Shown piece after piece: positions 140 through 23,568 of a stretch of DNA of 64,000 bases (positions are counted from its first letter, which is position 1; each line of letters begins with the position of its first letter). The stretch lies in the NCBI GenBank assembly GCA_025766275.1, contig JAFKAC010000004.1, positions 1,364,001 to 1,428,000 on the forward strand, written 5' to 3'. Under the pieces are notes generated by a model. It was not told the origin of the DNA, did no database searches, and worked only from the letters and a program-made list of their open reading frames with translations. The translations under genes were made by a program, and so were the position numbers. The DNA is from Lactarius indigo. Its lineage: Eukaryota; Basidiomycota; Agaricomycetes; Russulales; Russulaceae.

Positions 140-3100
140 CTAACGTCGTGACGGCGTTACATCGTCTGACATGACTTGTGGCATAGCCCCTGGGAGACTG
201 TCCAGGTACACAGGCTCTCCATAGACAGGCTGACCTCTACCCATACAGCCCTTCACATCTTGATGGTTACCAGTGTAGGCGATGTACTTGGCCAGGACTT
301 TAGTACCATCAGGTTGGTTGATATAGAGAGGGTGGAAGCGAGCTGAGGTTTCTGTATTTGGGAAGAAGGGGAGGCCTGGGTGGTCATCATCTTCGTCTGG
401 TTCATCGTTGGCAGTGGCAGCTACACGCTCATAGTTGATAGGGGCATCCTCCAGTGGAGGCATTGATGAGTGGGAAATCACAGAGACCGGGGGAGAGTCA
501 GGAGGAGGGGTGGAAGGAGGGAGTGGAGGAGGAGTGGCGGTCGGTTCAGGAGGGGGAGACAAGGAGGACCTTGGGACTAAGTTGGGATGCCCATTGAAGG
601 TTTCCAACAGCGCAACCAGTGCTGGGTTGACATCCATGGTGGTCTGTTGTTCTGGGGTTGGGGGTCGAGAGAAGAACCCTCGTTCTATGGAGCGTTCAAC
701 AAGGGCTTCAACAGAGGAGGAGCGAGAAGGCATTGTGTGCGAAGATGTAAGAATAGAGGAGTGGGGGTCTTTTCCTTCCAACCTTGTACTTCTTATATGT
801 GAGGCGGGCGCTCCTTCGGCATTCGGGTGTAGCCGGAAGAAGTCTTGAATTGCTTCAGGGGCCGATACATTTTCCTCCGGTTCCCATGAGTTGTCACTGT
901 CAGGGAAGCCCTTCCATTTGATGAGGTAATGGAGTTTACGTCGTCGTCCCTTCTTGGCAGAGTCTAGAACTTTCTCTACTTCCCATTCTTCTTCTCCGTT
1001 TATTATGTCAGGTGGGGGTCGTGGGAAGTTTTCTCCATGGAGCGGTGTTTCCCTATATGGTGTAAGTAGGTTGGCGTGGAACACAGGGTGGATCTTCCAT
1101 TGCAGGGGTAGGGCGAGTTCATAGTTGACCGGTGACAGGACTTTGGTAATCCTGAAGGGTCCATGTCGTTTTGGAGCTAGTTTGGCAGTTGGATGACTAG
1201 TCCTTATGTTTGTTCCTTCTAGCCACACCATTTCTCCTTCTTTGTATGGTTCAAACTTGGAGGGTCGCCGTGCTAGGGAATCTTGTGCTTTCTTTAGGTT
1301 GTCCTGAGCTTCCTTCCTCTTGTTCTTCAGTTCTTCAAGACGTTGTCCTACACTTGGAACTGGGGAGGGTTTTGGCGTCCATGTGGTGCGTGGGAGTTTT
1401 CCCATGATTAGTTCAAATGGGGGAATTCGGGTTGTAGCATTGGGCCAGGAGTTATGAGCAAATTCTGCCATTGGTAACCAGGTTACCCAATCATCCTGTC
1501 TTGCATTACACCAAAACCTTAGGTATTGTTCTAACCATTGGTTTGTTCGTTCTGACTGTCCATCTGTTTGTGGGTGGTATGCTGTTGAGATGTTCTGTTT
1601 GATGTCTAAGGCTTTGCAGAGGGCTCTTGCAAACATTGATGTGAATCGTGGGTCTCGATCAGAAATGACCTTCTTGGGAAGGCCATAGTGGCGGTAGATG
1701 TGTTGTAAATAGAGTTGTGCGACTCCGGCTGCATCTATTGTTTCGTTGCAAGGGATGAATAATGCTGCTTTTGAACAATCGTGATCTGTGACTGTGAGGA
1801 TTGTGTCATAGCCTTTTGACTTGGGTAATTTGACGATGAAATCCATGCTGACAGTTTCAAATGGTTCTGTCATCTGTCCAAAAATGGGTGAGAGGCTTGG
1901 CTTCTTTGGGTGGGTGTTGACTTTATTGGCTTGGCATGCTGCGCATCCTTTGACATATTCTTCCACATCTTTCTTCATGCCAGGCCACCAGTAGTCTCGT
2001 GTTATCAGAGCCATTGTGTTTGAAATTCCAGGGTGTCCAGCGCTTGGAAGGTCATGAAAAGCGTGAATTACCCCCCTCTTAAGGTCGTTGTTCCCTGCAA
2101 CAACCAAGCGCTCATCTTTCCAGTGGAGCCCTGAGTGTTCTTTTAGGTTGTGGGTATCTATCCAGGTTTTGATACGTTCCTGGTCTAGGTTCTGTGTGAC
2201 ATAAGCCCATAGTTCTTGTTCCTGTGGCAGTTCCCTTGTAGCTTTGACAAATAGTTCTTCCGGAAGGACTGTTACATCTGAGTTGTCATGGGAACCATCA
2301 TCATAGTCTGGTCTTCTTGACAGGGCATCTGCCCGGGCGTTCTTGGAGCCGGCAATGTGGTGGAGCTCTATATCAAATTCGGAGAGTTCCAGGACTTCTT
2401 GTGCTACCCGTCGGCTGATCTTGTGTGGTTCTTTCCAATATTGGAGGTTTGCATGGTCTGTGTACACCACTACCTTGTGAGGGGAGCCTGCTAGATATGC
2501 CCGCCAGTGTCGTAGAGCCCGCACAATGGCTAGCAATTCTTGATCATAGATGTCATAATTTCGTTCTGCTGGTCCAAATGTCTGGGAGTAGTAGGCCACT
2601 GGGTGGCGAATTCCTTGGTTATCCTTTTGGTAAAGCACCCCTCCGTTGGCAAATCGGGATGCATCCACTTCCAATTCAAATTGTTTTTCCAAATCCGGTT
2701 GAATGAGCACAGGTTCCTTTCCAAGCAGGGTCTTGAGTGTGTCAAATGCCTTTTGACAGTCTTCCGTCCATTCCCATTTGGTGTCCTTTTTGAGTAGGTT
2801 GTTAAGGGGACGGGCAATCATGGAGAATCCTCGGATGAAGCGGCGATAGAAATTTGCAAATCCTTGAAAGGCACGGACTTCTTTGGTTGTTGTTGGAGTG
2901 GGCCAGTCACGTACCCCCTGAACCTTAATCGGGTCCATTCGGACCCTCCCTTTTTCCAATATGACACCCAGGTACTCTATAGACCTAACCTCAAAGGCGC
3001 ATTTCTCCGGTTTTAGGTAGAGATCATGTTCCTCTAGGCGTTCTAGAACTTGATGGACCACCTTGCGGTGTCTTTCCAGGTCATCAATAGTGGCAATAAG

Positions 3101-4345
3101 GATGTCATCCATGTAGATTATGACTTCTCCAGTTAGGAGCATGTCACGGAATATTACGTTCATCATGGTCTGAAATGTGCTTGGCGAGTTGGTGAGTCCA
3201 AAGAACATGACACGTGGTTCAAACAGCCCCTGATTGGTTTTGAAGGCCGCCTTCCATTCATCTCCTTCTTTGATCCGGATGTTGTTATAACCCCATCGGA
3301 TATCAAATTTGGTAAATAACGCCGCATCCCGGACCTTGTCAATCAATTCTGGGATTAAGGGGAGTGGGTATCGATTCTTGACAGTGTACTGGTTGATCCG
3401 TCGGTAGTCTTGGACAGGGCGAAGCTTTCCATCTTTCTTTTTGATGAAGAAGAAGGGAGACGAGTATGGGGATTTAGAGGGCTGGATATATCCCTTTTCA
3501 AGGTGTTCATTGAGGAATTTGGTAAGGGCTTCATTTTCATCACGTGTTAGAGGGTATATTTTGCAATCAATAGTGGCTGGAGCATTTGGAGTGAGGTCAA
3601 TGGCGTGATCCCATGATCTGGTTGGTGGGAATCGGTGGGAGTTCTCTTCACTGAAGACCTTCTGATGTTGTAGGTATTCCTTGGGGACCATCTCCTCTAG
3701 CGTTCTTTCAGTTTGATCTCGTGCCTTTTGCGCCAATTCTGAGGCCACTGTGGTTTTGCCAATGACCTCATCTTGGGTAAATCTGAGATAGAGTTCATCT
3801 CCTTCCTCATACCCGCACTCTTCCAGGAACGTGCTCCACATTTTCCGGATGTGGATCTTTGGTTTGGGGGTGTCTTGTTTTTGGAGTCCTTGGGTAGTGA
3901 TGATGACAGGGAGGTGACTGGTGTCGATGGTGGAGTCCTTCCAGTTGCATTGGGGTTCAAAGGCAGCAAGCCAGGGGTATCCCAGGATCATTCGTTCTTC
4001 CCCTAGATTTGTCACCAGGAACCTCATGGGTAGTTTCTTGGATCCTGATTGGACATCTAGCATGGAGTATGCCGTTAGTTCTCCTGCCTTATTAAGGGTT
4101 CCGTCGATATTCCAGATCTTTTTTGGGTTTGACAGGGGTATCGTCCCTATCCCCATTTGCTTCAGGAGTCTGGGGTCTATGAAATTGTCCGTAGCTCCAG
4201 AGTCTACTAGGACATCTTGATCGGCCGTTTTGTGTGCAGTTTCCAGGTGTACAGGGACTTTCAAGGATCTATATTGACTATATTGTACACTGGAAATGTT
4301 TAAAGCTCTAGCCCAGGCCGCCGGGTTCGAGCCTACGAAAAATCC
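140..4345 (-). CDS. Pol polyprotein of G1 (PR-RT-RNase H-IN-chromodomain)
   Basis: Polyprotein that would copy and integrate the element. The long frame runs 4,264-140 (1,374 codons). It also stays open upstream to 4,345 in the -1 frame relative to gag, and a peptide NPAAWARAL there is shared with G3, so Pol is probably made as a Gag-Pol fusion by -1 frameshifting. Residues counted from 4,264: aspartic protease DSGATDN at about 21-27; RT with YMDD at about 382; RNase H with VDAS (about 532), QELLA (about 573) and TDHANL (about 600); integrase HHCC zinc region (about 735-770) and D,D,E core (SMDF about 806, DRDPRF about 870, QSE about 904); chromodomain YLIKWKGFPDSDNSWEPEENV about 1,095-1,145; then a Pro/Ser-rich tail. 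All catalytic residues checked are present and no internal stop is seen. Confidence 0.95.
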   Translation of the reverse strand, partial: GFFVGSNPAAWARALNISSVQYSQYRSLKVPVHLETAHKTADQDVLVDSGATDNFIDPRLLKQMGIGTIPLSNPKKIWNIDGTLNKAGELTAYSMLDVQSGSKKLPMRFLVTNLGEERMILGYPWLAAFEPQCNWKDSTIDTSHLPVIITTQGLQKQDTPKPKIHIRKMWSTFLEECGYEEGDELYLRFTQDEVIGKTTVASELAQKARDQTERTLEEMVPKEYLQHQKVFSEENSHRFPPTRSWDHAIDLTPNAPATIDCKIYPLTRDENEALTKFLNEHLEKGYIQPSKSPYSSPFFFIKKKDGKLRPVQDYRRINQYTVKNRYPLPLIPELIDKVRDAALFTKFDIRWGYNNIRIKEGDEWKAAFKTNQGLFEPRVMFFGLTNSPSTFQTMMNVIFRDMLLTGEVIIYMDDILIATIDDLERHRKVVHQVLERLEEHDLYLKPEKCAFEVRSIEYLGVILEKGRVRMDPIKVQGVRDWPTPTTTKEVRAFQGFANFYRRFIRGFSMIARPLNNLLKKDTKWEWTEDCQKAFDTLKTLLGKEPVLIQPDLEKQFELEVDASRFANGGVLYQKDNQGIRHPVAYYSQTFGPAERNYDIYDQELLAIVRALRHWRAYLAGSPHKVVVYTDHANLQYWKEPHKISRRVAQEVLELSEFDIELHHIAGSKNARADALSRRPDYDDGSHDNSDVTVLPEELFVKATRELPQEQELWAYVTQNLDQERIKTWIDTHNLKEHSGLHWKDERLVVAGNNDLKRGVIHAFHDLPSAGHPGISNTMALITRDYWWPGMKKDVEEYVKGCAACQANKVNTHPKKPSLSPIFGQMTEPFETVSMDFIVKLPKSKGYDTILTVTDHDCSKAALFIPCNETIDAAGVAQLYLQHIYRHYGLPKKVISDRDPRFTSMFARALCKALDIKQNISTAYHPQTDGQSERTNQWLEQYLRFWCNARQDDWVTWLPMAEFAHNSWPNATTRIPPFELIMGKLPRTTWTPKPSPVPSVGQRLEELKNKRKEAQDNLKKAQDSLARRPSKFEPYKEGEMVWLEGTNIRTSHPTAKLAPKRHGPFRITKVLSPVNYELALPLQWKIHPVFHANLLTPYRETPLHGENFPRPPPDIINGEEEWEVEKVLDSAKKGRRRKLHYLIKWKGFPDSDNSWEPEENVSAPEAIQDFFRLHPNAEGAPASHIRSTRLEGKDPHSSILTSSHTMPSRSSSVEALVERSIERGFFSRPPTPEQQTTMDVNPALVALLETFNGHPNLVPRSSLSPPPEPTATPPPLPPSTPPPDSPPVSVISHSSMPPLEDAPINYERVAATANDEPDEDDDHPGLPFFPNTETSARFHPLYINQPDGTKVLAKYIAYTGNHQDVKGCMGRGQPVYGEPVYLDSLPGAMPQVMSDDVTPSRR

Positions 4346-4347
4346 TT
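4333..4347 (-). promoter_or_regulatory. Putative -1 ribosomal frameshift site, gag to pol
   Basis: Gag ends AAG GAT TTT TCG TAG. The pol frame (GGA TTT TTC GTA) is -1 to gag and open across this point. G3 has the same AAGGATTTT at about 12,549-12,557, and both elements share the -1-frame peptide NPAAWARAL just after it. It is not a perfect X XXY YYZ heptamer, so the exact slip codon is inferred. Confidence 0.55.
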
Positions 4348-5907
4348 CTCAGCAAAGGCTTTCTCTACGAGCAGTGCTCGCACTTCCTCACTCTGTGCCA
4401 TCAGAGTCCCCCACATCTCATTTGCTAGTTCCTCTTTGGTTTTTGTGGTGGATGGTGCAGAGGGTGTAGTTGATGCTTCTGCGAGTTTGGCTGGTTTGTC
4501 AGGGCAGTTTCGCGATATGTGCCCCTGTTTCTTGCAACGGAAACAGCGCCCTTCTGCTTGGAGCTTCTGTTTTTCAGTTTCAGTGAGGGCTGCTCTTCCT
4601 GCAGCTCCTCTTTGAGTTCTTCCTATGTCCATCGCATTTGGGTCACGTGGTTTGACTTTAAAGGCATTGTTCCATTGCCCTTTTGTGAATCCGGCTTTAG
4701 TTTCCTTTTTGATTCCAAAGCGATTTTGGAGATTGATGAAGTCTTGATGGTGCTTTCTGGCTGATTGGGTCCATTCTTTCCAGTCATCTGGGTGGTCGAA
4801 CTGTATGATGTTCCTGACCAGTTTTTCAGGTAGACCCCGTGAGAAAATATCCAGGGTTCCTTCTTCATCTGCACCATATCCTGCCTTCTTTGCAAGGGCA
4901 GCGAACTGAGCAATATAGGTATCAAGGTCTCCATTCTCCATTTTGACTGCTTGGAGTGCCTTCTGTGCCTTCTGCTTTTCTGCAACGTCTGTGTAAGCAG
5001 CCTGGAAGCGATCTAGGATGGTGATCCACAGGTCTTCTTCTGTTGTGGCCCGTCCTCCAGCAAGTTCATCAGTAAGCCAGTCACTTTGTTCCATAACCCA
5101 GTCATCAACCAAGTCTCCTCGTATTAGGGAGAGGAAGACAATGCATCTGAGATAGGGGTTTCTCATTTGCTCGATTGATCCATTGAGGGCCCGGTAGAAG
5201 GTGAACTCTTTTAGGAATTTCTTGCTGTGGGCTCGGTCTCCAGTGAATTCTTTTGGTGGTAGGCCTGTTAATTTATCTCCGGCAGGAGGGGGGGCTAAAG
5301 GTGGGGCTCTTCCAGCAGGGATTCCTCCACCGCCTCCACCTCCACCTCCACCTCCGCCTCCACCTCCACCTCCACCTCCGCCTTTGCTACTGCCACCTCC
5401 ACTAGGGGTGTGGGTGATTGAGGTGTTGATTTGTGTGGCTGTGCTTGTCATTCTAATGCTTGAGTTTGTTGGTGTGCGAGCACCTGAATCTATGGGTTCT
5501 TGTGGGGCTAAAGAGGGGGCACCTGACGTAGCTTCCACTGATGCAACAGGGGATTGATGTTGATCCGAATCCTGAGCAGGTTCTTCTGTATCTGAGTCGA
5601 CAACTATGCCAACTGGGTTGTTTCTATATGGACCAAGTCCGAATTCTAGTGGTACTGGTTTGACAGAGAACCACTTGTGGTCTTTGGTTGATTGTGCGAT
5701 GACTACCCAGAGTCGTTTGTCTTCTATGTATTCAATAGGAATATATCCGTTGTCTTCTTTGCTCCAAACGTAATATCCTTCAGTTTCGTCGTAGGTTTTC
5801 CAGATGGCTACTCCCTTGATGTTGTCAGAGAGATCGTCTTCTGTTCTTCTGGTGATGAATTCTGGTTTGAACTGGGAACGGCTCCTGCTTCCTAGTTTTG
5901 AAGCCAG
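4333..5907 (-). CDS. Gag of G1
   Basis: Structural protein that packages element RNA. The frame is open from next to the primer site to TAG at 4,333. Features are an N-terminal region with EYIEDKRLW and KPVPLEFGLGP, conserved in G3 Gag; a poly-glycine tract near 5,323-5,384; the Gypsy capsid-like region (PKEFTGDRAHSKKFL onward); and one CCHC knuckle CFRCKKQGHISRNC. No in-frame ATG occurs in the conserved N-terminal part; the first lies about 450 nt in. I set the start at CTG 5,905-5,907 because it sits in an ACC-nTG-GCT context that aligns with GTG 14,907-14,909 in G3. The true start could instead be another near-cognate codon or a lost ATG. Confidence 0.85.
   Translation of the reverse strand: MASKLGSRSRSQFKPEFITRRTEDDLSDNIKGVAIWKTYDETEGYYVWSKEDNGYIPIEYIEDKRLWVVIAQSTKDHKWFSVKPVPLEFGLGPYRNNPVGIVVDSDTEEPAQDSDQHQSPVASVEATSGAPSLAPQEPIDSGARTPTNSSIRMTSTATQINTSITHTPSGGGSSKGGGGGGGGGGGGGGGGGGGGIPAGRAPPLAPPPAGDKLTGLPPKEFTGDRAHSKKFLKEFTFYRALNGSIEQMRNPYLRCIVFLSLIRGDLVDDWVMEQSDWLTDELAGGRATTEEDLWITILDRFQAAYTDVAEKQKAQKALQAVKMENGDLDTYIAQFAALAKKAGYGADEEGTLDIFSRGLPEKLVRNIIQFDHPDDWKEWTQSARKHHQDFINLQNRFGIKKETKAGFTKGQWNNAFKVKPRDPNAMDIGRTQRGAAGRAALTETEKQKLQAEGRCFRCKKQGHISRNCPDKPAKLAEASTTPSAPSTTKTKEELANEMWGTLMAQSEEVRALLVEKAFAEKDFS
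5323..5384 (-). repeat. GGN microsatellite coding poly-glycine in Gag
   Basis: Near-perfect trinucleotide repeat (CCN on plus strand) giving more than 20 consecutive glycines in G1 Gag. G3 Gag has a shorter Gly/Ala-rich tract at the same place (about 14,250-14,350), so the linker is conserved while its length drifts. Confidence 0.9.
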
Positions 5908-16392: not shown

Positions 16393-16397
16393 ACCAG

Positions 16398-16835
16398 TGT
16401 CACGATCACGTGACATCACAGTCACCTGTCACGAGTCACGAATCGCCAGCGCAACCGCTGGCTCACAATTATGCCAAACCCCTTGCCCAATTGCCTCAGA
16501 ATAACACCTTCTTGTATCAGAATTGCGCTAGCACTTACACGTCTCTCAGCTAGCTGATGTGGCCTAGATAACAGACCCAAAAACCCCAGTATTGTATGAC
16601 TATAAGAGTTGTAGAGTAAACAAGTAGTTACCTTGTCTACTCTTAGTCCTTTGAAACCAATCTACAGTTGCCTTGTCTTCGCTTGCCCGAATCCCCCTCT
16701 CTCGTGCGATTGCCTTCGGCTTGAGCCACGATCACCCCGACTTCAACTTAGTCGTTGACTAAGTTCCGACACTACCTGCCCTTGCCTTGGGCCCGAACTC
16801 GAACGCGTCACGGACGGTCCGTTGGTACCGTGACA
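16398..16835 (+). repeat. 5' LTR of the BTB element (438 bp)
   Basis: TGTCACG...CGTGACA. TATA-like CTATAAGAG near 16,600; predicted transcript start GTCTACTCTTA at 16,635 about 30 bp downstream. Base-by-base reading against 23,126-23,563 found no difference. Confidence 0.95.
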
Positions 16836-16846
16836 TAAGAGTAGAC
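16836..16846 (+). promoter_or_regulatory. Self-complementary primer-binding site of the BTB element
   Basis: TAAGAGTAGAC directly abuts the LTR and is exactly complementary to GTCTACTCTTA at 16,635-16,645, the predicted RNA 5' end. A local hairpin AAGAGT/ACTCTT also spans 16,837-16,853. Confidence 0.85.
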
Positions 16847-16862
16847 CACTCTTACTCTGCCA

Positions 16863-17340
16863 CGAACGAGGCGCAAGTCGTTCCGAACGAACTACTGATT
16901 GAGACGCTCGATCTCTCCAGTAAGCCGACACCCTGAAAGTTGCTGCAGGAAAGGACGATAGATTCTCCCTGCACGCGCGAACCCTGGTTGCCGCAGAACG
17001 AGGCGAAAGGCGTTCCCTGAAACCAGAACCGTGCGCGTAACAGTCCCGAGCGGACGCGTAGCACACCGACACTCAGTACGATCGATACTGCGAGTCACCA
17101 ACGAAATCCGGAACCCTGCTGCCACTGGACGAGGCGTAACGCGTCCCCACGAAACCGAATCACGATGCATAGAACCGAAACTGCTGCCGATGGACGAGGC
17201 GAAACGCGTCCCCACGACACCACGACTTGTGCGCATGACAGTCCCCGCGCGGACGTGCAGCACCCAGAGCCAGGACACGCGACGAATAACCTTCGTCAAC
17301 ACCGAGGAAACGAAACTGTTGCTGCTAGACGAGGCGGAAA
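16863..17340 (+). repeat. Degenerate tandem repeats with conserved bulged hairpins in the 5' leader
   Basis: Five copies of a hairpin motif (outer stem such as GGAC/GTCC, a GAG bulge, then GCG-loop-CGC) start near 16,864, 16,997, 17,128, 17,192 and 17,320. Spacing is near multiples of 64 bp (about 133, 131, 64, 128). Stem bases differ but pair: GAAC/GTTC in two, GGAC/GTCC in two, GAC/GTC in one. Other blocks of the unit also recur (GAACCCTG, AACAGTCCC, GCGCGGACG-like). Confidence 0.65.
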
Positions 17341-20300
17341 GCGTCCCACGAACCGAGACACCACTAATGATCTGAGACAACACGAATATATTGAACCAGC
17401 TAGCGGACACGACGTAAAGTGTTCGACAGATAGAACAGCACCCTCAAACCGCGCCAAGTACTGCGCAAACGAACGACGTACCGATCAGAACCTGAACTAC
17501 CCACGGAAAGAGTCAGTGATACTCGAGCAACCCACGATGCCAGTGAACGAACACGGACGACTCACGGAGCAAGCGCGAAATAACGCGACGACACAGGACT
17601 TGAAGGACCCCACGCTCAACAAATCAAGCAAACCGGCACAGCCGTGCGCAAAACCTACGAGGGAACGCGTAATCGAACGACACAGCACAGTACCCGTGGA
17701 AACGCCGCCCAGAGATCACGACAGCCGAGTAGACGGATGTCAGCGGATAGAACACGACAGCCGTGAAGGAGAGCAACGTACGGACACACAGAGATCGATG
17801 AACGCCTCATCGATAACAAAGAATCATCTCCCATATGCGGACCCCGAACCACGATCAAGCGCTTCTCGAACGGAAGCACGATACGGAATCCCAGGACCTA
17901 ACGGCAAAACAGACCACGGCGTAGAGGAGGTCATTCGACTCCCGAACGAGGCTCGAGTGCCCAAAGAAAACGGACCGACGAAAACATTATTCAGAGACCA
18001 TACTGACTGTTGTCAGCTAGGGCACAACCGGACCGAGACAGAACCACGTACTCACGAACCGGCGAGGAAAGACCTACACGAACCCCGAGAGGAGTTGAGC
18101 AACAGCGACACGAATTTGGTCAATCGATATCAGCACGACAGAACCGGAATAGACTCGTGTATTGACATACACAACGCGACACGCTTAGTCAACGAAAGAG
18201 ATGGGAAATCAACGACATGGGATCACGCCCGATCCGCGAACTTCGAATCGCAATCGATCACTTCTCGGCCAGAAGTAGGACGGGGCCCTCGATCAGAGAT
18301 CCTGATAACAGATAGCGAGGCAAGGACTGAGAACCTCTACGACGACGAGTCAACGGAAGGCCCAGAAACATCGACAAACGAAGTGAGGTTACATGCCTGG
18401 CGAACAGACGTCAGCAACACAGATGATACGATAAGGAAGTATCTGCCAAACTTGTATGGCAGATACGTGGAAAACGACCAAGTCGAAGCCCGTGTAGAAT
18501 CACTACACGAGGAGACGCACCGAATGGCGTACACGAACCAGCTAAGTCGAAGCCCGTGTAAGACCGTTACACGCGGAGACGCACCAGATGACGCACATAC
18601 CAACCAGGTAAGGCGAAGCCCGTACCGACAGGACGTACGAGGAGACGCACTGAATGATCAAAGAATAAGCCGAAGCCCGTGTGATAGAAGCGCACGAGGA
18701 GACGCACCGGATGACCGAATCACTACGCCCGTCAAGGCGGTAAGAATGAATCGGAACGAATCACGTTTCGAGAGATTCGACAGCGAACTCCCGTTGAAAA
18801 CAGCGTCGCGATCCCCGCGAAACAGCCGGGGTAAGCCAGAGACAGCCAAAGAAGTCACCACGTTCCTACCAAGAAAACTCATGACACGAGAGACATCAGT
18901 ATACGAACAATTATCGACAGAACGGATCGCGACCGAAATTCAAAGAATGGACGCCACTGCGAGGCGGAAAATAATCGCGCGAATATTGAACGTCGACGAA
19001 CTCACACTGAAACAAATCGCGACCAAACTCCGAGGTGCGGACGTCAGCACGCGACGAAAGGTGGTATCACGACTCGAAGAAAGACTGGAAAACGAACGGA
19101 AGGATGAGAACGCCGAAAGCGATGAGGGTACGGCAGTAAAAGCACTCACAGTTCATATGCTCGTGAAAGAACACCACGACAAAGTTGCTAAACTCGCGCC
19201 GGAGACGTTGAACAACCCCGACAACCAAAGCGAAAAGAGAAATGAAACTCCGAACGAACGCATCAAAATCCACGAAAGTACGTCAACTAAAGTGATCGCG
19301 ACACACGGAGAAGAACATCGAGACGACGCGGTTGCAATGAGCGACTCGGGAACCTCGGGCAGGGTCACCAATCACAGAAGAAAGGGGGAATTGAACCTCG
19401 AACTGAAACTCCGCGAACTTCGCCCCAACGTCAGTACAAGCGAAGTATCGAACCAACGAGATAGCATAACCTTCACGCATCGAGAAAAGACCCATTGGAG
19501 GTCACCCTCCTATACTACGCCTCCATACGTTGAGGATATAAGAGGAACTCACCTGGCAATCAACCGAACCGACAAAGAAATACCAGAAGGGGAACGACAC
19601 ATCACGCTGCAACAAGGCACCAGGGTCGACACCGTCGCGCAGCAACGTCAGGAGAGAAAAAGAAGAAAGTCGTTGAGAGAGCGTTACGCAGACCAGACGA
19701 TAACGCCGTCGGGAGGAACCGAACGGAAATTCCCACCACAACGAAACGACGATTATGTGATCGCATCAGTACCCAGTAAACCAACAATCACATCAAACAA
19801 AATATACTCGCTAAACGAGTTCGAATGCTGGAACGGTTCTAACACGGAATGCCTTGTGAAGAGGTATCTTCGTAAACCTCGGTCACCCCTCTTCTGTTCA
19901 GGAGTGAAAGACGAAAAACGACACCTGAGATACAAACCGCTAAAACAATCGACGATATGGAACGCGTGTGCGATCCTACTAATTCCAGACGCTCTAGGTC
20001 AACTGACCGACAAGACGCGCTTTACCGCGTCTGATATACGTCAATTGTATGCCGCCACCTGGGGTCAGGATCGGAAACAACGCCAGATTACGACTAAAGG
20101 ACTAGCCGGACCAACGACCGTACCCTCTTGGTTGACCGATTCTCTGACGAACCTCCGAATGAATGTCGAACTACGTCTCCCATTTCGTACCTCAGATTTA
20201 TCCGACAAGACTGTTCGCTTCTTTGGGCAACATGGCGATCTCGATCATTCCCAGCTACGCGCGCCACACACTGCCCTGTGTCTTGATACGAACAAAGTGG

Positions 20301-23089
20301 ACTACTTCAGTCGACAAAGTCTAGCACGAGCACTCTCTATCATCGAACAGATTCGCTGTACCTTTGGGACTCTCGAACGTCAACAACTACTTACCCCACG
20401 ATACGCCGAACCTGCCCAACCTCTTATGCAAAAGACTAACCCCTTTTCATACGCAACGGAGTACGCTACAACGCTCGGCATCCCTCTCAACATTACCTGC
20501 TCGTACCACATACGCCGACCAGCAGGTGCCTTGTGGTGCGATACCAATGCCACCCTTACACAGTTCGACGGTCGGAAGGAAGCACCGACTATCGACCACT
20601 TTCCACCACTACCCTCCCCCATTGAATGTAACCACTGTGCGTACAATCGCGAACTCTTCGCGCTGATGAATGCTCTCGCACACTGGCGACATCTGATCGT
20701 CGACACACGGTACCCGGTCATCATCCTCGCCAATCTCCACCGCCCGGCACATGTCGCTGCTGAACTTCGGTCCTGCACCGACCATCTTGTGATCGCGGAC
20801 GATCCCCTTCTGAGGAGGGGGGTAATTCAGTCGCTTCACGACTCAATCACCATAAAACACCCAGACAAGAACAAAAAAACCCCCGCACACCTTTGTCGTC
20901 CGTCAAACCACGACGAGATGTACCCCATTCCAGTACGGTTGCTTGGGACTGCGATCCAGTCGCCCCGCAAAAATTCGCCCACCCTCCAACGACTTCCTGT
21001 AAAAACAGGAACCACCAAGCGTAATGCAAGGCGCCCGACATACCAAGGGAACGAAACATTTCCCAACAAAAGATGGACTTCCCACCTGTGCACTGATAGG
21101 CGAAAACAGCAAACCCGTCGATATCTCGGACGGTACTCACAAATCAGTCTTCAACAAAAGAAGCAAATACCACGATCGACAATCGCAAAAGACGCACTAC
21201 GTGTGTGGTCACCCGATACGACTAAAAAGGTTCTATCCGGGTCGCAGATAAGTCTCTCCCTCTCCACGCTCCAACCTACACAACATACTCCACCCCCTAC
21301 TATCGGTACACGATGGCACGAACTCGAACAAACCCAAAGCAACGCGCGATACGCAAGGAAACAAACACGACTCAGGAGACTCTGCTACCGGCCTTGTCAA
21401 CCGAAAGATAGCGGGTATCGACCATTAGAAGCGTGGAAAGACCACCAAGTGTTCCATACACGATTACTCACCCCTTATCAAAGAAACGATGCCATCAGAA
21501 ATCGAGAAACGCAACCCCCACCCCAATCGATCCTGAAAGAAATCGAAGGAAGGAGAAGACAGATTCCCAACCATCAAACACGAGTCAAGGAGAAGGCGCC
21601 GCTATATCAGATACGGCGGGAGACATACTCCACCGCGCACGATAACGCAAAACCCCTAGATAACGCCCATACACCGGCTCGACTCGCACAACATAAGAGG
21701 CGAGTACAGTCAAACATCGACCCCACCACCACGAATTCCTCGACAATGGACCAACATCCCCCACTAACCACAGCTATCACAGCTGACCAGCTCCCTGCCC
21801 AGTGGACGTTCGAGTCAGACGACAAACACACAGCCCCCGCCCCTCTCCATGTTGAGGAGAGTCGACACACTCACCCGACATCAACGCCATCGCCATTCCC
21901 TACCACTGAAGGCCCTGATAAACCAGGGCGACCCATCATCACTCAGGACCACGACAGCACGACCGAAAGCCGTATCCAGGGAAACACAGACGTCGACCAG
22001 GGCGAAGGATCACCCCATGTCAATTCAGAGACGAATGTCCATCGCCGACACCACCTATACGACCTAGTGAATGCAGACGCTACGTTCGAAACGAACGATT
22101 GCACATTTCGTGTTCACAGTTACTTCTTCACACGCGAATCACCTTATTTCCGACGACTTTGGAAAATCGCGGGATCTACGACAGAAACGCCCATCGATCT
22201 TAGTAACGATGGACCGATCCCAGTTGAGAACGACACCACCGCGGGACCATACTACGTCGCGCTCGACGAGGTAACGACCGAGGAATTCGAACTACTCCTA
22301 TGGGTCTTCTATAACTCGGATTACTCGGTGTATGAGGCGACTACTCGAGAATGGACGCTAATCCTTCGATTAGCACAAAGATGGGAGTTCCCCAGGGTCG
22401 AAGCCCTATGCTGGAGGGAACTTCTAAACATCGGCTTAGTCACTCATTCTCCGTTACAGGTCCCACGAGGTCATTCTTTGCGTACTAACAACGAGAACAC
22501 TCATCACCGACGCCACACACGAAACCAACACTGTTCGACCCCCAGTCGTGAACCCGTGACTGAGACAACACCGCGACGGCTGACCGTGACGAATCCTGAC
22601 CCAGATCACGACACATCTCTTGCTATACCACGAGATAGCACGCAACCAGCCACCTCAAACGAACCAGAACCCAAAGCGCGACAGCGTCTACCCGTCGTAA
22701 TCGACCTCGTCGGGAATCACAATCCAACGCCAACACGAGGACACCCTAACGACCGCCGAGGCACACGAACTAGTACCTATCATTGCTACTACTGCCACGG
22801 TGTCAGACACACCAAGATTTTCTGTCGCCAACCTCACGCTCGGTGTACCCCGCAGCGACGGTGTATCATTCCACCCCGCCACCCTCATTACGGTCCCCGC
22901 TGTCCGACTTCATCGACTAATGAACGCACCCACACATGGGTACGCGACTCGCTTTCTCCAACTCGAGCGATCCAACCAACCACACGCCCTCGATACCGTC
23001 GACACCGAGCCACCATTGACAACCAACCCGCAGACGACTATGAATACCCCTACGACGTTGACTGGGAAGCCGCCGATCGAAGCCCCTAG
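17165..23089 (+). CDS. Chimeric ORF: degenerate Gypsy Pol skeleton + BTB/POZ + CCHC knuckle (1,974 aa)
   Basis: One uninterrupted frame from ATG 17,165 to TAG; the frame stays open at least 100 nt upstream, so the start is uncertain. Residues 1 to about 830 are Arg/Glu/Asp/Thr-rich low complexity, with four SRSP..RGDA repeats near 440-520 and a duplicated helical motif (IATEIQRMDATARRKIIARI, then IATKLRGADVSTRRKVVSRL) near 580-640. About 1,050-1,490 align in order with Gypsy Pol relics: YNRELFALMNALAHWRHLI (RNase H, flanking Asp residues lost), DDPLLRRGVIQSLHD..KHP (integrase zinc region), WKDHQVFHTRLLTPY and ESRKEIEG-like chromodomain edge; RT and the IN core are missing. About 1,620-1,750 is a BTB/POZ domain (FRVHSYFFTRESPYFRRLW ... 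TTEEFELLLWVFYNSDYS ... LAQRWEFPRVEAL). About 1,870 is CYYCHGVRHTKIFC. The sense strand is A/C-rich and T-poor, which favours long ORFs, but these in-frame domains argue for selection on the protein. Confidence 0.85.
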   Translation: MHRTETAADGRGETRPHDTTTCAHDSPRADVQHPEPGHATNNLRQHRGNETVAARRGGKRPTNRDTTNDLRQHEYIEPASGHDVKCSTDRTAPSNRAKYCANERRTDQNLNYPRKESVILEQPTMPVNEHGRLTEQARNNATTQDLKDPTLNKSSKPAQPCAKPTRERVIERHSTVPVETPPRDHDSRVDGCQRIEHDSREGEQRTDTQRSMNASSITKNHLPYADPEPRSSASRTEARYGIPGPNGKTDHGVEEVIRLPNEARVPKENGPTKTLFRDHTDCCQLGHNRTETEPRTHEPARKDLHEPREELSNSDTNLVNRYQHDRTGIDSCIDIHNATRLVNERDGKSTTWDHARSANFESQSITSRPEVGRGPRSEILITDSEARTENLYDDESTEGPETSTNEVRLHAWRTDVSNTDDTIRKYLPNLYGRYVENDQVEARVESLHEETHRMAYTNQLSRSPCKTVTRGDAPDDAHTNQVRRSPYRQDVRGDALNDQRISRSPCDRSARGDAPDDRITTPVKAVRMNRNESRFERFDSELPLKTASRSPRNSRGKPETAKEVTTFLPRKLMTRETSVYEQLSTERIATEIQRMDATARRKIIARILNVDELTLKQIATKLRGADVSTRRKVVSRLEERLENERKDENAESDEGTAVKALTVHMLVKEHHDKVAKLAPETLNNPDNQSEKRNETPNERIKIHESTSTKVIATHGEEHRDDAVAMSDSGTSGRVTNHRRKGELNLELKLRELRPNVSTSEVSNQRDSITFTHREKTHWRSPSYTTPPYVEDIRGTHLAINRTDKEIPEGERHITLQQGTRVDTVAQQRQERKRRKSLRERYADQTITPSGGTERKFPPQRNDDYVIASVPSKPTITSNKIYSLNEFECWNGSNTECLVKRYLRKPRSPLFCSGVKDEKRHLRYKPLKQSTIWNACAILLIPDALGQLTDKTRFTASDIRQLYAATWGQDRKQRQITTKGLAGPTTVPSWLTDSLTNLRMNVELRLPFRTSDLSDKTVRFFGQHGDLDHSQLRAPHTALCLDTNKVDYFSRQSLARALSIIEQIRCTFGTLERQQLLTPRYAEPAQPLMQKTNPFSYATEYATTLGIPLNITCSYHIRRPAGALWCDTNATLTQFDGRKEAPTIDHFPPLPSPIECNHCAYNRELFALMNALAHWRHLIVDTRYPVIILANLHRPAHVAAELRSCTDHLVIADDPLLRRGVIQSLHDSITIKHPDKNKKTPAHLCRPSNHDEMYPIPVRLLGTAIQSPRKNSPTLQRLPVKTGTTKRNARRPTYQGNETFPNKRWTSHLCTDRRKQQTRRYLGRYSQISLQQKKQIPRSTIAKDALRVWSPDTTKKVLSGSQISLSLSTLQPTQHTPPPTIGTRWHELEQTQSNARYARKQTRLRRLCYRPCQPKDSGYRPLEAWKDHQVFHTRLLTPYQRNDAIRNRETQPPPQSILKEIEGRRRQIPNHQTRVKEKAPLYQIRRETYSTAHDNAKPLDNAHTPARLAQHKRRVQSNIDPTTTNSSTMDQHPPLTTAITADQLPAQWTFESDDKHTAPAPLHVEESRHTHPTSTPSPFPTTEGPDKPGRPIITQDHDSTTESRIQGNTDVDQGEGSPHVNSETNVHRRHHLYDLVNADATFETNDCTFRVHSYFFTRESPYFRRLWKIAGSTTETPIDLSNDGPIPVENDTTAGPYYVALDEVTTEEFELLLWVFYNSDYSVYEATTREWTLILRLAQRWEFPRVEALCWRELLNIGLVTHSPLQVPRGHSLRTNNENTHHRRHTRNQHCSTPSREPVTETTPRRLTVTNPDPDHDTSLAIPRDSTQPATSNEPEPKARQRLPVVIDLVGNHNPTPTRGHPNDRRGTRTSTYHCYYCHGVRHTKIFCRQPHARCTPQRRCIIPPRHPHYGPRCPTSSTNERTHTWVRDSLSPTRAIQPTTRPRYRRHRATIDNQPADDYEYPYDVDWEAADRSP
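18479..18720 (+). repeat. Four tandem ~60-bp repeats, each with a pairing-conserved hairpin
   Basis: Units begin at CGAAGCCCGT near 18,482, 18,548, 18,612 and 18,669 and code SRSP..TRGDAPDD-like peptides. Each has an inverted repeat just after the start: CGTGTAG/CTACACG, CGTGTAA/TTACACG, CGTAC/GTACG, CGTGTG/CGCACG. The stem sequence changes between copies while both arms stay complementary. Confidence 0.75.
22043..22435 (+). other. BTB/POZ domain segment inside the retroelement ORF
   Basis: Encodes about 130 residues with the order seen in agaricomycete BTB proteins: ATFETNDCTFRVHSYFFTRE, SPYFRRLW, then APIDL-like turn, VTTEEFELLLWVFYNSDYSVYEA and LRLAQRWEFPRVEALCWREL. In hosts such genes are usually stand-alone; here the segment is in frame between Pol relics and a CCHC knuckle. 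BTB domains mediate protein-protein contacts, often with cullin ligases; its role here is unknown. Confidence 0.85.
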
Positions 23090-23111
23090 ATCGTTCGCGG
23101 ACGAACGAACC

Positions 23112-23125
23112 TAGAAGGGGGGCTA
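23112..23125 (+). promoter_or_regulatory. Polypurine tract of the BTB element
   Basis: AGAAGGGGGGCTA ends immediately before the 3' LTR TGTCACG. The position and purine run fit the plus-strand primer of reverse transcription and confirm plus orientation. Confidence 0.85.
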
Positions 23126-23563
23126 TGTCACGATCACGTGACATCACAGTCACCTGTCACGAGTCACGAATCGCCAGCGCAACCGCTGGCTCACAATTAT
23201 GCCAAACCCCTTGCCCAATTGCCTCAGAATAACACCTTCTTGTATCAGAATTGCGCTAGCACTTACACGTCTCTCAGCTAGCTGATGTGGCCTAGATAAC
23301 AGACCCAAAAACCCCAGTATTGTATGACTATAAGAGTTGTAGAGTAAACAAGTAGTTACCTTGTCTACTCTTAGTCCTTTGAAACCAATCTACAGTTGCC
23401 TTGTCTTCGCTTGCCCGAATCCCCCTCTCTCGTGCGATTGCCTTCGGCTTGAGCCACGATCACCCCGACTTCAACTTAGTCGTTGACTAAGTTCCGACAC
23501 TACCTGCCCTTGCCTTGGGCCCGAACTCGAACGCGTCACGGACGGTCCGTTGGTACCGTGACA
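23126..23563 (+). repeat. 3' LTR of the BTB element (438 bp)
   Basis: Same length as, and read as identical to, the 5' LTR. It is followed directly by the ACCAG target duplication at 23,564-23,568. Confidence 0.95.
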
Positions 23564-23568
23564 ACCAG

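What the first reader, a model, noticed from the sequence alone, without database searches (positions are those of the whole stretch)
16398..23563. A young LTR retroelement has fused a BTB domain and a CCHC knuckle onto a dead Pol skeleton
Seen: 438-bp LTRs that read as identical, a perfect ACCAG duplication, and one 1,974-codon ORF with Pol landmarks in order but no protease, RT or integrase catalytic motifs, followed in frame by a BTB/POZ domain and CYYCHGVRHTKIFC. Known: non-autonomous LTR elements usually have no ORF, a gag, or a captured gene; BTB domains recruit partners such as cullin ligases. Inference: the element codes one protein that may act as a Gag-like RNA carrier with a host-interaction module, mobilised in trans. 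It may be a new family of domesticated-in-reverse element.
Basis: partly seen in the sequence, partly recalled or inferred. Interest (0 to 1): 0.93.

Follow-up and report, generated by a model that had tools for sequence, protein, structure and literature searches.

The report
Fungal retroelement with dead-polyprotein reading frame
A family of jumping elements in a milk-cap-like fungus has lost its copying enzymes but keeps their 900-codon wreck readable from end to end, apparently so that a host-derived BTB domain and a zinc-binding domain at the far end still get made.

Summary
In detail: identical 438-bp LTRs, an ACCAG duplication, one 1,974-codon ORF, a decayed Pol, then BTB and a zinc domain. 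The element belongs to a family. Of 9 copies examined, 5 have an uninterrupted frame of 2,022-2,077 codons; the three measured against the window are only 57-63% identical to it. Coexisting autonomous Tf1/sushi-type chromoviruses show what was lost: the ORF is colinear with their PR-RT-RNaseH-IN-chromodomain, with YMDD gone in all 6 copies checked. They also show what was not gained: the terminal zinc domain is their own C-end. Only BTB is an addition, apparently captured once, nearest to Russulaceae host proteins. The new result is the selection pattern. In the Pol relic, substitutions fall evenly on codon positions 1, 2 and 3 (0 of 15 pairs above neutral), yet the 5 intact copies have no stops where 16-22 are expected. 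BTB (6 of 6 tested pairs) and the zinc end (9 of 9) are under purifying selection. So the relic looks like an open but unconstrained transit frame. The family shares its LTR end and self-priming site with autonomous elements, and carries its own covarying RNA hairpin array. Gag-like function and movement are not shown.

The parts
16393..16397 (+). 5' target-site duplication ACCAG
16398..16835 (+). 5' LTR, 438 bp, TG..CA, identical to the 3' LTR
16601..16605 (+). TATAA box candidate, 34 nt before the self-priming motif
   Evidence: LTR position 204
16635..16645 (+). GTCTACTCTTA, complementary to the primer-binding site; predicted 5' end of the RNA (Tf1-like self-priming, inferred)
16836..16846 (+). 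primer-binding site TAAGAGTAGAC directly after the 5' LTR
16861..17356 (+). leader (and start of ORF) with five GNACGAGGC..GCGTNC hairpin-like units
   Evidence: (D3)
17165..23089 (+). single ORF, 1,974 codons
18484..18706 (+). array of covarying RNA hairpin units CGAAGCCC-[17 nt]-GAGGAGACGCA (exact at 18484, 18614, 18671; a variant near 18548)
   Evidence: (D2)
19268..20884 (+). decayed protease-RT-RNase H (residues about 702-1240), open but without codon-position constraint
20885..21844 (+). decayed integrase and chromodomain (residues about 1241-1560), open but without codon-position constraint
22073..22423 (+). BTB/POZ domain (residues 1637-1753), purifying selection
22784..22903 (+). C-terminal zinc domain C-x2-C-x4-H-x4-C plus further invariant H/C (residues 1874-1913), homologous to the C-end of autonomous elements
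23033..23086 (+). near-invariant tail DDYEYPYDVDWEAADRSP
23113..23125 (+). polypurine tract AGAAGGGGGGCTA before the 3' LTR
23126..23563 (+). 3' LTR
23564..23568 (+). 3' target-site duplication ACCAG

Best explanation
This is a semi-autonomous Ty3/Gypsy element descended from a Tf1/sushi-type chromovirus. SHOWN: (1) It is colinear with coexisting autonomous elements that encode Gag-PR-RT-RNaseH-IN-chromodomain-extension-zinc domain in one ORF. (2) Its RT and integrase motifs are destroyed in all 6 copies checked. (3) Where the autonomous extension has another domain, it has one BTB domain whose nearest relatives are Russulaceae host BTB proteins. (4) BTB and the zinc end evolve under purifying selection, while the Pol relic before them evolves without regard to codon position, yet stays free of stops in 5 of 9 copies. 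(5) The LTR 3' end and the self-priming primer site are identical to those of many autonomous elements. INFERRED: The LTR-driven RNA is translated as one polyprotein. The relic is only a transit frame that must stay open so ribosomes reach the BTB-zinc module. That module acts with cis-preference as an adaptor: the zinc domain binds the element RNA (perhaps the hairpin array) or the particle, and BTB dimerises or recruits a host partner. Reverse transcription, packaging and integration come in trans from the autonomous elements.
For: Independent insertions: exact 5-bp duplications in 7 of 9 copies, LTR pairs 93-100% identical in the 8 copies where they aligned over most of their length. Frames of 2,022-2,068 codons in the window, L041, L043 and L044, and 2,077 in L047. 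Colinearity with the autonomous ORF in the ORF frame, up to autonomous residues 350-1594 in L040, E 2e-65. Zinc domain homologous to the autonomous C-end, E 7e-8, ligands kept in 6 of 6 copies. Codon-position shares with an identity filter: relic 641-1560 .307.361.332, 0 of 15 pairs above neutral; BTB .264.136.600, 6 of 6 tested pairs above; zinc end .192.186.622, 9 of 9 tested pairs above (of 15 pairs, those left out had under 25 differences). Positive control: autonomous L048 vs L049 Pol .156.084.760. Stops expected in 920 codons at 20-28% divergence 16-22; observed 0 in 5 copies, 1 in L040. Partner: the 18-nt junction of LTR end and PBS occurs 149 times (control 3), 47 exactly. Of the 47, 32 precede autonomous-type RT hits and 10 relic-type hits. 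Autonomous L048 has an unbroken ORF with RT, RNase H, integrase zinc, SH3 and chromodomain over cut-off and LTRs with 1 mismatch in 343. BTB tree: element clade (100/100) joined to Lactifluus proteins, 95/91.
Against: No expression, protein or mobility data. Subfamily B (L046 and, by equal frame length, five more copies) has a stop just before its 464-aa BTB-zinc ORF yet has multiplied, so an unbroken frame is not always needed. The N-part 1-560 shows weak constraint (4 of 15 pairs above neutral), and 1 of 13 pairs exceeds neutral in the sub-region 1201-1560. I fetched copies for their paired LTRs or strong BTB match, and used for the codon tests those with open or nearly open frames. Mosaicism between copies means the pairs are not independent. 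Two thirds of blastn indels inside the ORF are not multiples of 3 (107 of 161), which calls for compensating indels or alignment noise; the clearest out-of-frame segments lie in the tandem repeats, not in the relic. In L048 the integrase core (rve) and protease profiles score below their cut-offs; L049 has a changed protease motif and its 3' end was not captured.
Confidence: 0.68

Rival explanations
1. The open frame protects the genomic RNA (for instance from nonsense-mediated decay) or keeps ribosomes moving along it; the protein made from the relic and the delivery of BTB-zinc are secondary.
For: The relic shows no amino-acid constraint but no stops. A full-size RNA is kept: the four elements with mapped ends are 7,050-7,218 bp against about 7.1 kb for autonomous L048 (LTR coordinates).
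Against: BTB and the zinc end are under clear purifying selection, so a protein product matters. Subfamily B multiplied with a stop before BTB.
Confidence: 0.15
2. The relic is still a working structural protein (for instance an RT/IN-shaped scaffold that joins the partner's particle) with fast but real constraint.
For: It remains about 25% identical and colinear to the autonomous Pol over more than 1,000 residues in L040, L042, L044, L045 and L047.
Against: Even substitution at the three codon positions in the relic as a whole, 0 of 15 pairs above neutral, against a .76 third-position share in autonomous Pol. Catalytic motifs and zinc ligands lost, deletions differ between copies.
Confidence: 0.08
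3. Ordinary dead-on-arrival copies: a recently inactivated autonomous element whose frame simply has not yet collected stops.
For: Several copies are indeed broken (L039, L042, L045 of 9).
Against: Median divergence between the six codon-tested copies is 22-39% in the relic, with 16-22 stops expected at 20-28% and none seen in 5. All 6 copies checked lack YMDD and integrase CxxC, so enzyme loss is probably ancestral.
Confidence: 0.04
4. A domesticated host gene or an assembly artefact rather than a mobile element.
For: The long ORF contains a host-type BTB.
Against: At least 59 LTR matches in the genome, distinct 5-bp duplications at 7 of 9 copies, primer site in 8 of 9, LTR identities from 93 to 100%.
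Confidence: 0.02

Closest known systems
Wheat RLC_Angela non-autonomous subfamilies and barley BARE2 (PMC9744471, passages read)
   Different: Non-autonomous Angela elements have numerous frameshifts and in-frame stops and encode no functional protein; BARE2 has its GAG disrupted with the other genes intact. Here the enzymes are dead but the frame is kept open, and a new terminal module is selected.
Wheat RLG_Sabrina_SA and RLG_Sabrina_NA2-NA8 variants (PMC9744471, passages)
   Same: Semi-autonomous or non-autonomous elements that carry their own proteins, some apparently acquired, beside an autonomous partner judged by primer site and LTR ends.
   Different: There RT and INT are absent and short new proteins replace GAG-Pro. 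Here a colinear Pol relic stays in frame and the new domain sits near the C-end of the polyprotein.
Tf1/sushi chromoviruses (recalled, plus search listing)
   Same: The autonomous relative L048 has the Tf2-1-like SH3 and chromodomain; this family has 5-bp duplications and an 11-nt self-priming match.
   Different: This element lacks working enzymes and carries BTB.
Host proteins joining BTB to an integrase zinc-binding domain (vertebrate ZBTB11; PMC12062965, passages)
   Same: BTB next to retroelement-derived sequence.
   Different: Those are host genes that captured an element domain. This is a mobile element that captured a host domain.

Membership tests
LTR retrotransposon (Ty3/Gypsy) | paired LTRs with TG..CA ends, target-site duplication, primer site, polypurine tract | tested here: met
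LTR retrotransposon (Ty3/Gypsy) | PR-RT-RNaseH-IN order of Pol | tested here: met
   met as a colinear relic only: in the window, in copies
Tf1/sushi-type chromovirus lineage | chromodomain and Tf2-1-like SH3 in the related autonomous element | tested here: met
   for L048; in this family only a chromodomain relic. No RT tree was made
Tf1/sushi-type chromovirus lineage | self-priming: RNA 5' end complementary to the primer site | tested here: met
   11-nt match in 8 of 9 copies; L047 LTR not resolved. Sequence evidence only; the RNA start was not mapped
autonomous Gypsy element | intact RT and integrase active sites | tested here: not met
   YMDD 0 of 6, IN CxxC 0 of 6
semi-autonomous LTR element | no full enzyme set, own conserved protein, LTR end and primer site shared with an autonomous partner | tested here: met
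semi-autonomous LTR element | mobilisation in trans by the partner | not testable with these tools
   needs a transposition assay
Gag-only carrier element | recognisable Gag capsid region | tested here: not met
   N-part vs autonomous Gag hhalign probability 0.5; no Pfam gag hit in the window ORF or in L041, L043, L044. A Gag relic is seen only in subfamily B
BTB/POZ domain | profile match over curated cut-off | tested here: met
   window segment alone 29.1 bits vs 20.5; L046 29.7, L043 20.5, L044 21.2; L041 whole ORF 13.4, below
BTB/POZ domain | three-dimensional fold | tested here: inconclusive
   single-sequence model pLDDT 40.7; job with alignment not accepted, machine busy

The most novel reading that the evidence does not exclude
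A retroelement has turned its own dead polyprotein into a selected but sequence-free transit frame, and together with a captured host BTB domain, an inherited zinc domain and a private covarying RNA hairpin array has built its own RNA-recognition adaptor that lets its genome outcompete the autonomous element's RNA for shared machinery.
Probability: 0.3. Interest if true: 0.92.

Novelty: new variant of a known kind. Interest (0 to 1): 0.8.

Why it matters
It separates two things that usually go together: selection to keep a frame open and selection on what the frame encodes. Here about 900 codons appear to be kept only for passage. That gives a natural test system for how non-autonomous elements stay cis-selective, for why such elements keep long ORFs, and for how a host interaction domain can be recruited by a parasite of a parasite. 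Autonomous elements with the identical LTR end and primer site sit in the same genome, so the model can be tested directly.

Tried and rejected
Rejected: Gag-like N-part in this family. CCHC as a new fusion. An autonomous element with BTB: among the 132 PF00651 matches (150 of 214 candidates scored) none lies at a listed place of the autonomous C-end (compared by eye). Compensated frameshifts in the relic as an argument: most out-of-frame segments turned out to be the tandem repeats, so only the block at residues 126-177 against L040/L043 (67-68% identity), which lies in the N-part, remains a candidate. Known RNA families: none. Solved structures: only Kaiso BTB at E 0.11-0.13.

Led nowhere: the first pattern search (a poorly chosen pattern); protein search with the window tail and with the autonomous C-end, both without hits; single-sequence fold. 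Paper searches: BTB with LTR elements (3 papers, from the listing unrelated), non-autonomous LTR in basidiomycetes (0), fungal chromodomain Gypsy with additional domains (106, 15 listed), BTB/retrotransposon/Agaricomycetes (2), self-priming (15, 12 listed), nonautonomous ORF under selection (8), Lactarius Gypsy (0), BARE2/Morgane (9, 8 listed). That I found no such element in print rests on these and on the passages read only.

Full report
WHAT IS THERE. The window lies at contig C226:1364001-1428000 of an unnamed 90.3 Mb genome. The element at 16398-23563 has LTRs identical over 438 bases, TG..CA ends and the duplication ACCAG. A single frame of 1,974 codons fills it. The host is probably a Lactarius-like mushroom. 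This is an inference: the best protein matches to the element's C-part are Lactarius indigo gene models, P0001 at 80% identity over 29% of the query, and P0001 falls inside the element clade of the BTB tree.

A FAMILY. The LTR has at least 59 matches in the genome (only 40 of 145 candidates were scored). I fetched 8 further copies. Seven of 9 copies show their own exact 5-bp duplication; for L045 and L047 it was not determined. Stop-to-stop frames are 2,022 (window), 2,043 (L041), 2,068 (L043), 2,023 (L044) codons and 2,077 (L047, ORF 2,008 aa). L040 has one stop; L039, L042 and L045 are broken. LTR pairs are 100% identical in the window, L040 and L043, and down to 93.1% in L045; L047's aligned over only 91 bp. 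In one search the ORFs of L041, L043 and L044 are 57, 57 and 63% identical to the window's, the two pieces of L040 56 and 60%. Copies are mosaics: window and L044 have dS 0.11 in the N-part but 1.24 in BTB.

WHERE IT COMES FROM. Searching the genome with the RT/RNase H relic finds, beside family members, over 100 further matches at 30-41% identity, several in frames over 2,000 codons (150 of 1,094 candidates scored). One, L048, has an unbroken 2,078-codon ORF with gag, zinc knuckle, RT, RNase H, integrase zinc, Tf2-1 SH3 and chromodomain over the Pfam cut-offs, integrase core and protease below them, and no BTB. Its LTRs differ at 1 of 343 positions. The ORF runs on for some 500 residues after the chromodomain and ends in a zinc domain. 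The window ORF is colinear with it (ORF 702-1233 with 457-1068; 1307-1547 with 1313-1594; 1858-1964 with 1969-2064). In L040 the match covers autonomous residues 350-1594 in one frame, E 2e-65. The zinc domain is the shared C-end (hhalign probability 94.6, E 7e-8); its cysteines and histidines are kept in 6 of 6 copies and 7 of 7 sequences. YMDD, integrase CxxC and the last two RNase H aspartates are kept in 0 of 6. The autonomous C-end also has a middle domain (about residues 166-388 of the query) that our family lacks; BTB stands in its place. In a midpoint-rooted tree of 41 BTB sequences (34 of 36 database proteins; I left out P0002 and P0006, whose BTB is incomplete), the 7 element BTBs and P0001 form one clade (100/100). 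It is joined to Lactifluus volemus and L. subvellereus proteins and one unnamed protein with support 95/91. That suggests one capture, most likely from a Russulaceae host gene.

THE SELECTION PATTERN. With a local identity filter, differences among the window, L041, L043, L044, L047 and L040 fall on codon positions 1:2:3 as .307.361.332 in the Pol relic (residues 641-1560). 0 of 15 pairs exceed the 95% range of neutral simulations with stops forbidden (60 each). By sub-region it is 0 of 12, 0 of 6 and, for 1201-1560, 1 of 13. BTB gives .264.136.600 (6 of 6 tested pairs above), the zinc end .192.186.622 (9 of 9), the N-part .309.302.389 (4 of 15) (pairs with under 25 differences were not tested). 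Without the filter the same contrast is seen. As a positive control, Pol of autonomous L048 and L049 gives .156.084.760 and Gag .176.049.775. NG86 omega agrees: BTB 0.12-0.30, zinc end 0.09-0.25, relic parts 0.42-0.95 over 10 pairs. Despite this freedom the relic holds no stop in 5 copies and one in L040; simulation expects 8.7, 16.3 and 21.8 stops at 10, 20 and 28% divergence (40 runs each, lowest 2, 7 and 13), and the other two frames hold 25-40. Among blastn gaps, 54 of 161 in the ORF and 13 of 107 outside are multiples of three.

HOW IT COULD MOVE. Directly after the 5' LTR stands TAAGAGTAGAC, the reverse complement of GTCTACTCTTA inside the LTR, 34-35 nt after TATAA, in 8 of 9 copies. This is the layout of Tf1 self-priming (recalled knowledge). 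The 18-nt junction of LTR end and primer site occurs 149 times with up to 2 mismatches, against 3 for the reversed pattern, and 47 times exactly. Of the 47, 32 lie 1.5-5 kb before an autonomous-type RT hit, 10 before a relic-type hit and 5 before neither, judged against hits copied from the capped list. One of the five is L041 of this family, whose relic was not in that list. L048 has the same primer site with a 10-nt match in its LTR, 34 nt after TATA, and its first 28 LTR bases are 89% identical to the window's. So the partner's integrase and reverse transcriptase should see the same signals.

AN RNA FEATURE. Units CGAAGCCC-[17 nt]-GAGGAGACGCA repeat in the N-part (18484-18706). The genome holds 39 (control 0). 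They are absent from L048 and L049. Of the 39, 38 lie on contigs with matches to this family; the one on C14 has only a primer-site hit (compared by eye). In 25 distinct units (one longer unit left out) the arms pair in 125 of 150 cells, against a mean of 107.9 and a maximum of 118 when right halves are dealt anew, 0 of 2,000 reaching it; stems differ (for example GTGTAG/CTACAC, GTACC/GGTAC, GTGTCA/TGACAC) but fold alike. Units are read in two different frames within one ORF, so they seem conserved as RNA, not peptide. A packaging or recognition role is a guess.

RESULTS AGAINST. Subfamily B keeps BTB-zinc as a 464-aa ORF with a stop before it (L046); five more copies show the same 465-codon frame. 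So an unbroken long frame is not indispensable everywhere. L046 also keeps a Gag relic that I could not find in the window family. The copies are few, related and mosaic, and those in the codon tests were chosen for open or nearly open frames. L049, one half of the positive control, has a changed protease motif and an uncaptured 3' end. Nothing here shows transcription, translation or movement.

COMPARISON. [quoted passage not shown] The present family resembles both in way of life. It differs in keeping a dead polyprotein open and in adding a host BTB to the inherited C-end. The main text of a survey of fungal LTR elements does not use the word BTB (PMC3248453, term search), nor does that of a screen of fungal element co-option (PMC10799480, term search).

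Noticed in passing
window 140-5538 (- strand): Another Gypsy element with a chromodomain: Gag ORF (4333-5538) and Pol ORF (140-4264) with RT, RNase H, integrase, SH3 and chromodomain by Pfam.
   Followed up: partly
L046:3222-8833 (contig C267) and five copies on C269, C90, C250, C238, C268: Subfamily B: BTB-zinc as a separate 464-aa ORF after a stop, six copies with the same frame length, with a Gag relic in L046; the primer site can lie about 9 kb upstream (C90).
   Followed up: partly
genome contigs C218:271-409 kb and C259:1.87-2.16 Mb: Dense arrays of BTB-domain matches on two contigs, many in pairs of equal or near-equal score and frame length between them; could be two haplotypes or a duplication.
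   Followed up: no
window 16861-17356: Leader repeats GNACGAGGC..GCGTNC that look like small hairpins, five in the window copy and 0-4 found in the other copies by the same pattern.
   Followed up: partly
L048:1642-7878 C-end and contigs: Autonomous elements share a domain plus zinc domain after the chromodomain; in a second group the zinc end is 49-69% identical while the domain before it is mostly 35-43%. No relative found in the protein database.
   Followed up: partly
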